In this document: positions 52,162-62,855 of the stretch, in pieces
Layout: each line of letters begins with the position of its first letter
How positions within the stretch are numbered: the stretch's first letter is position 1
DNA from: Calonectria ilicicola
Lineage: Eukaryota; Ascomycota; Sordariomycetes; Hypocreales; Nectriaceae
DNA: 64,000 bases
Direction: 5' to 3'
Assembly: GCA_020809705.1 (NCBI GenBank)
Contig: CP085825.1
Coordinates: 6,882,001 to 6,946,000, forward strand
The notes under the pieces: generated by a model
Seen by the model: only the letters and a program-made list of their open reading frames with translations
The model's database searches: none
Told to the model about the DNA's origin: nothing
Translations under genes and position numbers: made by a program

Positions 52162-53274
52162 TCATATTACTCTCTCCAACCGTCCTTTCAATGTATATAC
52201 TAGCTTCTGTCCAGATACTTTCTTCGCGCGGATCTCTTCAAAACCATCCAAGACACCCTCTAAGCCCGTATCTCTGATAAGCAAAGGGTGTGTCCGAATC
52301 AAATTGCGATCCAGCAATATTTGCAATGTACGTACCCACTCGACACAAAATGACTTCAAATGGGAATTAGCTGGACGGCCATGTGGCTCAGGCCACGGAA
52401 TTTCCTCCCCAAGCATCTCAGGTCCTAACAACCAAGTAGGATGCACCACCTTGCGTGTGCTGGTGACTGATTTGTTGAATGGATCTAGGGCTACATATTT
52501 ACCACCGGGTCGACCAAGGGCGGCGTAGCAAAGGCGTGTACTATCTGTTGTAGTGATACAGTCGAGGGCGTATCGAAGCGACTTGCGAGTGAGCGTGCGT
52601 ATGTCTTCGGCGCACGTCGCAGAACGATAGTCAAAGACGTGATCGGCCCCAAATGACCTCGCAAGCTTAAAGTTTTGTGGTGAGCATGTCGCTATCGTAG
52701 TATACCCTGAGAGCTTGAGCAGCTGCAGGGCTGCTGTTCCCGAAGCGCTAGAGCCACCATTGACTAAGACCGTTGTCGTTGACACTTTGTCATTAGGCGT
52801 CCTGTCGATGGGGTCAAGAGGCCTACCAGGGAGCCCGAGTGTCTGAAACAGGGCTTGACCAGCAGTTGTCCAGGAAGTGCCAAGACTGGCACCCTCTTCA
52901 AAGCTCCAGTTGGGAGGCAGTTTAAGACAGCTCCACGCTGGAGAGGTTGTCTGGGCCGCAAATGCGCCAATGTCAGGTCGCAGCGGGTTCAATCCCGAAA
53001 CAACACTACAGACACGATCTCCCACCTTCATATCGCTATTAGCAGCAATAAGGCCCACAGCTGTAACTACGCCAGCAAGGTCGCATCCTGAAATGGCACC
53101 AGGTGTGTGGTAGTCACCAACCATCTTTGTGTCGACGGGGTTGATTGAGACAGCTTTGATTTCAATCGCAACGCGGTCATCTTCAAGCTCAGGAACGGGT
53201 GCCGAGTGAGAAAGAACAATCTTGCCTTCCGAGTCCCCGACAAGAGCTGTCTGGGTCTTCGGTATAGAGCTCAT
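52162..53274 (-). CDS. Trans-acting enoyl reductase, LovC-like (zinc-independent MDR family)
   Basis: A single-exon gene for 370 residues, near the 363 of LovC. The N-terminal GroES-like domain has VAIEIKAVSINPVDTKM and GCDLAGVVTAVG, without the zinc ligands of alcohol dehydrogenases. The NADPH-binding domain has VLVNGGSSASGTAALQLLKLSGY, TCSPQNFKLARSFGADHVFDY and YALDCITT. The C-terminal part has HPTWLLGPEMLGEEIPWP and SGQKLVYTL. Proteins of this group dock on highly reducing polyketide synthases that lack a working ER domain and reduce the enoyl-ACP intermediate at chosen steps. Divergent placement next to exactly such a synthase supports this. Confidence 0.9.
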   Translation of the reverse strand: MSSIPKTQTALVGDSEGKIVLSHSAPVPELEDDRVAIEIKAVSINPVDTKMVGDYHTPGAISGCDLAGVVTAVGLIAANSDMKVGDRVCSVVSGLNPLRPDIGAFAAQTTSPAWSCLKLPPNWSFEEGASLGTSWTTAGQALFQTLGLPGRPLDPIDRTPNDKVSTTTVLVNGGSSASGTAALQLLKLSGYTTIATCSPQNFKLARSFGADHVFDYRSATCAEDIRTLTRKSLRYALDCITTTDSTRLCYAALGRPGGKYVALDPFNKSVTSTRKVVHPTWLLGPEMLGEEIPWPEPHGRPANSHLKSFCVEWVRTLQILLDRNLIRTHPLLIRDTGLEGVLDGFEEIRAKKVSGQKLVYTLKGRLERVI

Positions 53275-54872
53275 GACTATCGCTTTCCCGAAGCCCGTAC
53301 CGAGCTTGACTAAAAACGAACTTTTAGTTTAGACGATAAAAGATAGTATTTGCTTACATGTGAATCGAAGCGACCAACCTGTGACTAATGATCCTGTAAG
53401 CAGTAGAGACAACAAGTAAAGGCCACTAATGTCATAAGATCCGTAGCTGTATCAGTAGTTCTTCTAACATCGCTTGTTTAGCGTGGAAATGTTCCTTTTG
53501 TTTCTGAGAAATGCGTGGAATGACGCTAAAATATACGACGTGACTTGTGAACGGCAACCCGGTATGGAGGGCCAAAATCGTCGACCATCCCGGTTTAGCT
53601 AAAAAAAAACCCTAAAGTTCAGTCTATTCAAACGTGAATGGGGAAAATGCCGTCCCCCCCAAACACTGGCTTGGCCAGCTGAATTCCCTAGCTTCGGTTA
53701 CCCCATCAAGCTGATTGGCCCCATGGTATCCGAAATTCCCGAAGATCCAAAGGTAGATTGATGGAGACACTAAGAATAGATCGCAGCTGTCGAATCTGGA
53801 AACATCCCCAGGGTCTCGGAAGCTAGCGGAGGTTACTGCAGCTCCCCACCTCTTCAGGGTTACAGACACCCTTCAACAGCCTTGACAAAGCTTTTTTTTT
53901 CTCAGATGACGAAAGAGGTAAATTTTAAAGTCAGATTCGAGAAATTCCCATCTTGTATTCATTTTCTTTTTCGATTTATTTGCCAGGATGCCTTCTGACA
54001 CAGCTCCGTGAACGACATGGTATGTGATGTCTTGCCACTTCCATCTTCCCCGGTGGGGTTACATGGAACCCAACCCCCTTGTCGGTTAGGCATAATTTAC
54101 CAATAGCGTGCCCATAATTTCCAGCATCTATTATAGCAATATTCCCGTCCCTCTTTTAGCAATGGTTTCTATCACAAGGAGGTATTAGCCGGCGCGACTT
54201 GTCTAACCAGACAACTCCCCGCTGCGATTGCACCAACCTCCGGCACGGGAGTCGTAAGTTGCAGCAAAAAGCGAAATGCGCTTGTGGTCGTCTTTACTTG
54301 TGATTATATGATGACATCGTTCCAATATCCAACGCAACCCTGTCATCAGGGACAAGGAGGTATCTCACATGGCTTCAGCTTGGTGCTAGGGATCAATGAG
54401 ACGAAAAGTGCTCCACTCACAATACACTAACTCGCTGTTGAAGTTCATATTTAGCATAATTGTGATTCCCACTCTCGAATTAGCAAACGCGCTATTGTAA
54501 AATTATGGAGCCCTGCAGCACCTGGCATCATTTTGCCGGTTTAGCCTGCCCAGCCGCTCCATTCTTGGTCCAACTATGGAGCTTATCCGTTGCAGATCCA
54601 AAATTAGATACTTGATTGAAAAGTGCATCGCGCGGTAGCTTGTCCCACTATGCCGGATACGACTCCGACCGGGATGTGAGGGTTGTCGTTATGGGCTCAG
54701 TATCTGCTGAAGGCGACCCTTGTAGCAAAGAAAAATAGCTGCGTGGCTTTTCGTTGAGAGGCGATATTTGATCCATGCTCTCATGCGCATGAGTTACCCC
54801 CTGACAAAATCAAAATTATCTGACCCAACTCCTCGCTAGTTCTATAAGTCTCTCAAAAACTCAGTGATCAAA
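53275..54872. promoter_or_regulatory. Shared divergent promoter region of enoyl reductase and polyketide synthase
   Basis: About 1.6 kb between the two start codons, with no credible gene inside. Both genes face away from it, so it probably co-ordinates their expression. TATA-like TATAAG lies at 54843-54848, close to the synthase start. Several CGG-containing motifs that Zn2Cys6 factors could use are present, but no repeated palindrome stood out by eye. Confidence 0.55.
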
Positions 54873-60800: not shown

Positions 60801-62855
60801 GTGGATGATAGCCCTCCCATCGGCGCCTTGTGCGGAGCTCCTTGTTTCTGTCGCAGCTCATATTCTTAGCAAAAGTATCATATCTGTGGCGCCGCAGGTT
60901 GGGTCCGTTCTTATTCACGAGGCCGATCCGATCTTAAGAGATGCAATTATCACAGAGGCCACGCAGTCCGGGGTCACAGTGATATTCTCTTCGTCAACAA
61001 GCCAAATTCAGGGCAACAACATTCTGTTTATCCAACCCAATCTACCAACACGGGTTATTAAGAAGCTTCTCCCTCGGAATATCTCTCTATTTGTCAATTT
61101 AGCCCAAAATCCCGGTGCCAATGAAGTTGGCGAAATAATCACCAAGTGCCTCCCACAACAAGTTCAAACAATTGGCCCGACACGCTTTTTTAGCACCGAA
61201 ACCTGCGTCCTCCCAACTGCCTCAGTTGAGCAAATCCGTGTTTCACTCACAATGGCATTGGAATTAGGTCAGACTTCAAAAAATTTGTGGACACCTCCAA
61301 CCATTGCTCAAACTGTTGCTCTATCTGAAATTTCACAGCATTCGATCGTTGGCGAGCCATTGATCGTCGTTGATTGGAACATCCCATCGGTCGAGATTTC
61401 AATGAAACCCATTGACTCTGGTAATATTTTCCGCGCCAATGGGACATACTTCCTCATTGGCCTCTCAGGTCAACTGGGGCAGTCTCTGTGCCATTGGATG
61501 GTCACCCATGGAGCTCGCAACGTCGTCCTCACCAGCCGCAACCCCATGGCCCGACCAGGTTTCATCAACATGATCGAGGAACTGGGCGCTACGGTCAAAT
61601 TCATGGCTTTGTGAGTTATTATATAACATTGTAGGAGCGCAAGCTGACTCATTATTTTATAGGGACATCACAAGCCGTGACTCTCTGTATTCTTGCTACG
61701 ATGAAATTTGTCGCACCATGCCGCCTGTGATTGGCGTAGCCAACGGTGCCATGATTCTAGAAGATCAACTATTCGACAATATGACATGGGAATCCTTTGA
61801 CCGACAATTGGCGCCCAAGGTTGACGGTAGCGCACTTCTTGACGGACTATTTTACACCACTAATCTTGACTTTTTTATCCTCTTTTCATCCCTAAGTAGC
61901 ATATTAGGAAACTCGGGTCAAGCAGCGTATGTTGTCGCCAACCAGTACATGGTCGCATTGGCTGCCCAACGCAAGAAGCGTGGCCTCGCCGGCTCAGCAA
62001 TCGCCATCAGCTCTCTTACGGGAATTGGTTATCTCGGGCGCACCGAGCGCTTCGATTCTGACCACTTCACAAAGCTCGGGTACCGTAATATTTCGGAGCA
62101 GGATTATTTCCAACTGTTCGCCGAAGGGATTTTGGCAGGTCTACCAGAAAACTCGGAAAACTCGGAAATTATCACTGGCATCAGCCCCATCTACGATGAC
62201 CACACTGTCCATGCTCAATTCCGCAGTGACCCCAAGTTTTCCCATTTCATTATGGAAAAGCCCGATAATCAAATTCTGGTCGGCATTACCACTACTATTC
62301 CCACTAGCATTCGACTGTCTGGTGTCAAGTCTATTGAAGAAGCTACCACAATAATCACAGGTAAAATCTTTCCAGCCTGAGAGGTATATATTTTTACTGT
62401 GCACATAACTAACATGTGCGAAAACAGAATCTTTCATCGCCCGTTTGAAGGCAATTCTTCATATCCCACAAGAAGAGATGATGAACGAGAATGTCACATT
62501 AGTGGAGCAAGGTGTTGACTCTATCATGGCGGTAGATGTCCGCACTTGGTTCCTGAAGGAGTTAAGCATCGACATGCCTGTGCTAAAGATTTTAGGACCT
62601 AGCGCCACAATCCCGCAGCTAGTTGATGAATCCATAAAGAAACTCCCTCCATCAATTGTCGATCTGAGCAAGTTCAAGTCTGACGAGATCGAACTACCTC
62701 GGGTTGAGAACACGCACCCCTTGACAATAAAAGGCCTGTCTGACTCACCAGGTCACACATCTTCAGCGATAACCTCGCCTTTGGCCACACCATTCACCGA
62801 TCCAAATTCGGAATTGGTGGACCATGCAGACAATACGGACAAATCGGACCCATAA
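54873..62855 (+). CDS. Highly reducing type I polyketide synthase, KS-AT-DH-MT-(ER0)-KR-ACP
   Basis: Seven exons: 54873-55195, 55262-55575, 55632-56064, 56124-56329, 56384-61610, 61663-62360, 62428-62855, giving 2,542 residues. The 54-nt intron 56330-56383 is in frame and open, but its removal restores the KS motif SFGFGGTNAH. KS residues are intact: Cys in DTACSSS (about 177), His in HAHGTGTQAGDP and in GHTEST. AT has GQGAQWP (about 545) and GHSSGE (about 633). DH has His in DGHKLEG (about 960) and Asp in LLDASLQ. MT has LEIGAGTGGATS (about 1418). There is no NADPH-binding ER; only a relic (LLVSVAAHILSK, SVLIHEADP) precedes KR. KR has GLSGQLGQSL (about 2117), with SLSS and AAYVVAN. ACP has GVDSIMAVD (about 2430). 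The chain ends about 105 residues later, with no TE, R, C or CON domain. Confidence 0.93.

What the first reader, a model, noticed from the sequence alone, without database searches (positions are those of the whole stretch)
52162..62855. Divergent LovC-type reductase and ER-less polyketide synthase with no release domain
The synthase has intact KS, AT, DH, MT, KR and ACP signatures but only a relic where ER should be, and the adjacent gene encodes a LovC-like trans enoyl reductase. This is the architecture of lovastatin-type and PKS-NRPS-derived systems. Here the chain stops about 105 residues after the ACP, within a Ser/Thr/Pro-rich tail, with no CON, C, TE or reductase domain. Release must use a separate enzyme that is not obvious in the window. 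The product is not predictable from sequence and the pair could be undescribed.
Basis: partly seen in the sequence, partly recalled or inferred. Interest (0 to 1): 0.75.

Follow-up and report, generated by a model that had tools for sequence, protein, structure and literature searches.

The report
Polyketide synthase that lost its NRPS
A fungal gene pair encodes a large polyketide-making enzyme and its helper reductase; the big enzyme appears to descend from a two-part enzyme that also added an amino acid, has lost that second part together with its way of releasing the product, and otherwise looks intact, which is an uncommon but known kind of change.

Summary
Observation confirmed. Window 54873-62855 (+) splices into a 2542-aa KS-AT-DH-MT-psiKR-psiER-KR-ACP synthase; 52162-53274 (-) encodes a 370-aa LovC-like trans-enoyl reductase. 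The closest relatives are full PKS-NRPS hybrids (72, 69, 69% identity). The Ser/Thr/Pro-rich tail aligns with their ACP-to-condensation linker and stops short of the condensation domain. No NRPS remnant was found downstream, and no cognate NRPS half in the 21 of 78 scored condensation-domain places compared; the whole-genome protein search did not complete. Catalytic residues are kept and lineage changes avoid invariant columns (11 of 484 against 225 of 1113), although the lineage evolves faster than intact hybrids. The tree favours a loss separate from that in a Hyaloscypha relative (AU p = 0.032). The nearest scored release-enzyme-family match on the chromosome is about 248 kb away. Best reading: a working LovB-like standalone synthase with unknown product and release route. 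New member of a known kind.

The parts
52162..53274 (-). LovC-type trans-enoyl reductase, single exon, 370 aa
   Evidence: E = 3.6e-86 to LovC 3b6z; 77% to Hypoxylon sp. EC38, 76% to A. terreus
53275..54872 (.). 1598-bp divergent intergenic region between the two start codons
   Evidence: Coordinates; promoter function inferred
54873..62855 (+). Highly reducing PKS, 7 exons (54873-55195, 55262-55575, 55632-56064, 56124-56329, 56384-61610, 61663-62360, 62428-62855), 2542 aa: KS-AT-DH-MT-psiKR-psiER-KR-ACP
60505..61407 (+). Inactive ER region (about residues 1800-2100): no ER Pfam match; 57% identity to P0001 against 86% in KS
   Evidence: coordinates
62428..62636 (+). ACP (about residues 2401-2470), phosphopantetheine Ser2432 at 62520-62522
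62637..62855 (+). 72-residue Ser/Thr/Pro-rich tail and stop, aligned to the ACP-condensation linker of PKS-NRPS relatives
   Evidence: (tail alignments with P0001, P0002, P0003)
62856..64000 (.). Downstream flank without a recognisable NRPS remnant; no second copy found in the genome

Best explanation
The pair is a standalone highly reducing polyketide synthase and its trans-enoyl reductase. The synthase descends from a PKS-NRPS hybrid that lost its whole C-A-T-R module at the ACP-C linker (supported by comparison). It probably builds a C-methylated, partly reduced chain on its own ACP, with the neighbouring reductase docking at the AT domain as LovC does on LovB (inferred from homology). With the amide-forming and ring-closing steps gone it cannot make a tetramate by itself. 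Release is most likely by spontaneous pyrone formation or by an unlinked hydrolase (inferred; undecided between the two).
For: Of the 120 best matches 106 are at least 3500 aa, and the three best are hybrids covering 98-100% of the query at 69-72% identity. Tail and stop align with the ACP-C linker. The window enzyme nests in a 9-row clade (100/100) with 3 complete hybrids, 4 sequences under 1800 aa and one standalone enzyme. PKS and NRPS trees of 25 chosen hybrids carry the same 13-row split at 100% support, so the halves look co-inherited and loss is favoured over ancestral absence. No frameshift or in-frame stop; catalytic residues kept. Window-lineage changes fall on 11 of 484 invariant columns against 225 of 1113 variable ones, a ratio of 0.11, near the 0.07 and 0.09 of two intact hybrids and below the 0.20 of P0004. 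The reductase shows 2 of 75 against 41 of 214, and its nearest rows are from Hypoxylon, A. terreus and one unnamed contig. The LovC docking loop TRKM (271-274) reads TRKV here and LovB's AT stretch EDES (747-750) reads EDEG (positions from PMC7870829 passages; alignments).
Against: The window lineage has evolved faster than the intact hybrids (211 against 122 and 199 against 140 with outgroup P0005; 328 against 124 and 297 against 160 with outgroup P0004), and so has the reductase (31-48 against 12-20 in six comparisons); relaxed constraint would also give this. Part of that branch may predate the loss, so constraint after the loss is not isolated. Two further LovB docking positions, H741 and G744, both read E here. 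KS motif HTEGT reads HTEST. No expression data. Co-expressed separate PKS and NRPS modules of CcsA made no product in vivo (PMC4994942 section 8), so losing the module may stop product formation. No clustered release, transport or regulator gene was tied to the pair.
Confidence: 0.65

Rival explanations
1. A decaying relic: the hybrid lost its NRPS half and the leftover PKS and reductase make nothing useful, but have not yet picked up disabling mutations.
For: Faster evolution than intact hybrids; no tailoring or release gene recognised in the 30 neighbouring ORFs scanned; dissected CcsA modules were inactive in vivo.
Against: 2542 codons in seven exons intact; catalytic residues kept; substitutions strongly avoid invariant columns; the reductase is constrained too.
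Confidence: 0.2
3. A sub-case of the best reading: an ordinary ACP-terminated synthase whose release enzyme sits elsewhere in the genome, in the way of LovB/LovG and FSL1/FSL2.
For: LovB and FSL1 are released by trans-acting thioesterases (PMC6299560 and PMC6274466 passages); the genome has 15 FSH1-family matches.
Against: No scored match of PF03959, PF12697, PF00975, PF00144 or PF02458 lies within about 248 kb of the pair (for PF12697 only 60 of 97 candidates were scored).
Confidence: 0.35

Closest known systems
PKS-NRPS hybrids of Hypoxylon sp. FL1857 (P0001), Aspergillus floccosus (P0002), A. terreus (P0003); I found no product for them
   Same: Same PKS domain order, 72, 69 and 69% identity over 98-100%; A. 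terreus and another Hypoxylon (EC38) also have a reductase at 76-77%
   Different: They continue into C-A-T-R (about 1400 aa), absent here
LovB/LovC (lovastatin nonaketide synthase)
   Same: Inactive ER plus trans-ER; standalone enzyme placed among hybrids (PMC3705289 passages); homology over residues 6-2529
   Different: LovB keeps a truncated C (CON) domain and uses LovG; no CON here and no LovG-family match near the pair
Fusarielin FSL1/FSL5/FSL2
   Same: KS, AT, DH, MT, KR, ACP with inactive ER plus trans-ER (PMC6274466 passages)
   Different: Has a clustered thioesterase FSL2; phylogenetic relation not tested here
Hyaloscypha finlandica P0004 (2515 aa) and Metarhizium album P0005 (2531 aa)
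   Same: Standalone-length relatives ending after the ACP (63 and 55% identity)
   Different: Separate branches; AU test rejects window + P0004 as one clade at p = 0.032; their DNA, gene models and neighbours were not seen

Membership tests
LovB/LovC-type standalone HR-PKS with trans-ER | KS-AT-DH-MT-psiKR-psiER-KR-ACP in order | tested here: met
LovB/LovC-type standalone HR-PKS with trans-ER | KS, AT and DH catalytic residues | tested here: met
   LovB residue numbers from PMC7870829 passages
LovB/LovC-type standalone HR-PKS with trans-ER | Adjacent LovC homologue | tested here: met
LovB/LovC-type standalone HR-PKS with trans-ER | LovC-AT docking residues | tested here: inconclusive
   3 of 4 kept in the LovC loop (TRKV) and 3 of 4 in the AT stretch (EDEG); H741 and G744 not kept
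LovB/LovC-type standalone HR-PKS with trans-ER | C-terminal CON (truncated C) domain | tested here: not met
LovB/LovC-type standalone HR-PKS with trans-ER | Clustered LovG-type thioesterase | tested here: not met
   15 FSH1 matches (19 of 19 candidates scored), the only one on C1 is at 1.08 Mb; for other families
LovB/LovC-type standalone HR-PKS with trans-ER | Reductase acts on the synthase in trans | not testable with these tools
   Needs expression
PKS-NRPS hybrid | C-A-T-R module in the same protein | tested here: not met
PKS-NRPS hybrid | PKS part nested among hybrids | tested here: met
Fusarielin-type (FSL1/FSL5) | Phylogenetic grouping with FSL1 | not tested
   FSL1 sequence not fetched

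The most novel reading that the evidence does not exclude
Within one PKS-NRPS clade the NRPS half has been lost at least twice independently (window, Hyaloscypha P0004; perhaps also Metarhizium P0005), and the leftover pair stayed under constraint and offloads its chain with no clustered release enzyme: a natural series for how a hybrid synthase becomes a working standalone one.
Probability: 0.4. Interest if true: 0.5.

Novelty: new member of a known kind. Interest (0 to 1): 0.32.

Why it matters
Loss of NRPS domains has already been proposed for LovB (PMC3705289 passages). This pair would be a further, apparently separate case in which nothing recognisable of the condensation domain remains. 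It offers a close comparison (about 70% identity) between intact hybrids and a standalone form, which could test whether product release needs a dedicated partner and how the chain is programmed once the NRPS module is gone. The product is unknown.

Tried and rejected
Splicing past the stop into a release module: no NRPS coding found downstream. A nearby NRPS half: none above 47% in the 20 regions compared. A repeat at the break: the 3' flank matched only itself. One shared loss with P0004: rejected weakly (p = 0.032). The nearby acetolactate-synthase-like gene as a self-resistance copy: two further copies exist, the near one best conserved; left undecided.

Slips of mine: the AU test printed is mis-specified because I left P0074 out of the named group; I rely on the split itself. 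The first NRPS tree dropped 13 of 32 rows through a narrow start pattern and was replaced (25 chosen rows). One search used 37 and one search used 18 of the 120 listed relatives.

The Pfam surveys of the neighbourhood covered 30 chosen ORFs, not every ORF; small or intron-rich genes may be missed.

Full report
What is there. The window is C1:6882001-6946000 of a 70-Mb, 12-contig fungal genome. A nucleoporin (Nup157/170 type) encoded about 40 kb to the right is 94% identical to that of Ilyonectria robusta, so the host is probably a relative of Ilyonectria. The two genes stand head to head with 1598 bp between start codons. Left of them the next recognised genes are an RRM protein (ORF 51201-51920) and a FAD-binding oxidoreductase (ORF 49427-50203); right of them come a PigL_N protein and, about 8.4 kb on, a TPP enzyme that reads like acetolactate synthase (that name is my own reading).

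The synthase. Six short GT-AG introns give one open protein of 2542 aa. Domains and catalytic residues are intact apart from the ER region. It matches LovB over its residues 6-2529, but nothing corresponds to LovB's C-terminal CON domain.

Origin. Its three best relatives are complete PKS-NRPS hybrids (72, 69, 69% identity). Of the 120 best, 100 are at least 3800 aa, 6 are 3500-3800, 4 are 2900-3050 (their Pfam lists keep a condensation domain), 6 are 2400-2600 and 4 are shorter pieces. Of the six at 2400-2600, one (P0088) runs into the first residues of a C domain and is probably a broken model; the other five end after the ACP, in tails of 33-120 residues with 31-38% Ser/Thr/Pro. The window tail (72 residues, 36%) aligns with the ACP-C linker and stops just short of the C domain.

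When the loss happened. In the careful tree P0004 branches first, then the window enzyme (93/91), then seven rows (93/92), three of them complete hybrids and four too short to show their ends. In the quick tree of 38 rows the order of P0004 and the window enzyme is unresolved. The AU test rejects window plus P0004 as a clade at p = 0.032. PKS and NRPS trees of 25 chosen hybrids share the same 13-row split with full support, so the hybrids look vertically inherited and the standalone forms look like losses. These are two losses if the tree is right; P0005 may be a third, but its position is not resolved.

Is it alive? For: intact frame, catalytic residues, and avoidance of invariant columns (window 11/484 against 225/1113; P0001 2/475 against 55/943; P0003 4/477 against 89/977; P0004 21/494 against 239/1127). 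Against: faster evolution than intact hybrids (211 against 122 and 199 against 140 with outgroup P0005; 328 against 124 and 297 against 160 with outgroup P0004), though not different from P0004 (216 against 224). Among columns invariant in the other ten rows compared, the window has 23 private changes, P0004 and P0005 28 each, P0001 4 and P0003 6 (P0001 and P0003 are close kin, which lowers their counts). The reductase shows the same pattern, 31-48 against 12-20.

Release. Five families that include release enzymes were sought in the genome (PF03959, PF12697, PF00975, PF00144, PF02458). The nearest scored match on the same chromosome is an Abhydrolase_6 about 248 kb away. Separate modules of CcsA did not work together in vivo, while ApdA modules did in vitro, as told in PMC4994942 (section 8 read). 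LovB and FSL1 use trans-thioesterases (PMC6299560 and PMC6274466 passages), and LovB whose LovC docking is broken makes pyrone shunt products (PMC7870829 passages). I therefore rate spontaneous pyrone release and an unlinked hydrolase as the two likely routes.

Docking. LovC residues 271-274 TRKM are TRKV here; LovB residues 747-750 EDES are EDEG; LovB H741 and G744 both read E here.

Distribution. Among the 120 listed rows no Fusarium, Thelonectria or Cylindrodendrum row exceeds 53% identity over at least 90% of the query (three Fusarium rows reach 55-57% over 60-67%), and no Ilyonectria row appears, while Hypoxylon, Aspergillus and Hyaloscypha rows reach 63-72%. Horizontal transfer or repeated loss could explain this; it was not tested.

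Literature. The listings showed no paper whose title or abstract start names this pair or its three closest hybrids. The library holds open-licence papers only. Of seven papers opened I saw passages, and of one of these (PMC4994942) also one section. A survey of Hypoxylaceae says that most of its PKS-NRPS clusters resemble no known cluster (PMC8403587 passages).

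Noticed in passing
L022 (C9:5131000-5140999), 7963-9621 minus: A second truncated synthase in the same genome: ACP, linker and a condensation domain cut after about 350 residues (47% to P0001's C domain), LovB-like in layout.
   Followed up: partly
L009:8263-10000 minus: Acetolactate-synthase-like gene about 8.4 kb from the synthase; two further stretches match it at C4:3789537 (69% DNA identity) and C4:2128445 (72%), the first with a stop in its TPP-domain match.
   Followed up: partly
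G000 C3:6974589-7018118: Very long NRPS open frame (15,376 aa) with 13 scored condensation domains, of peptaibol-synthetase size (that comparison recalled).
   Followed up: no
L021 (C7:3362500-3372499): Hybrid-type NRPS region with three stops inside its C-domain match; top-scoring of the loci compared with P0001's NRPS half (42-45%).
   Followed up: no
window 49004-50775: FAD-binding (BBE-like) oxidoreductase with a signal-peptide-like start, about 1.4 kb from the reductase with an RRM gene between; solanapyrone Sol5 is of this general type (recalled). No evidence that it belongs to the pair.
   Followed up: no
window 1675-3165, 31502-32185, 37444-37995: SBD_N/NBD_C kinase-like, Asp/Glu racemase and DHDPS-family genes scattered in the window.
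   Followed up: no
L011:4012-8630: NLR-like gene: phosphorylase-superfamily domain followed by frames that read by eye like NACHT and ankyrin repeats.
   Followed up: no
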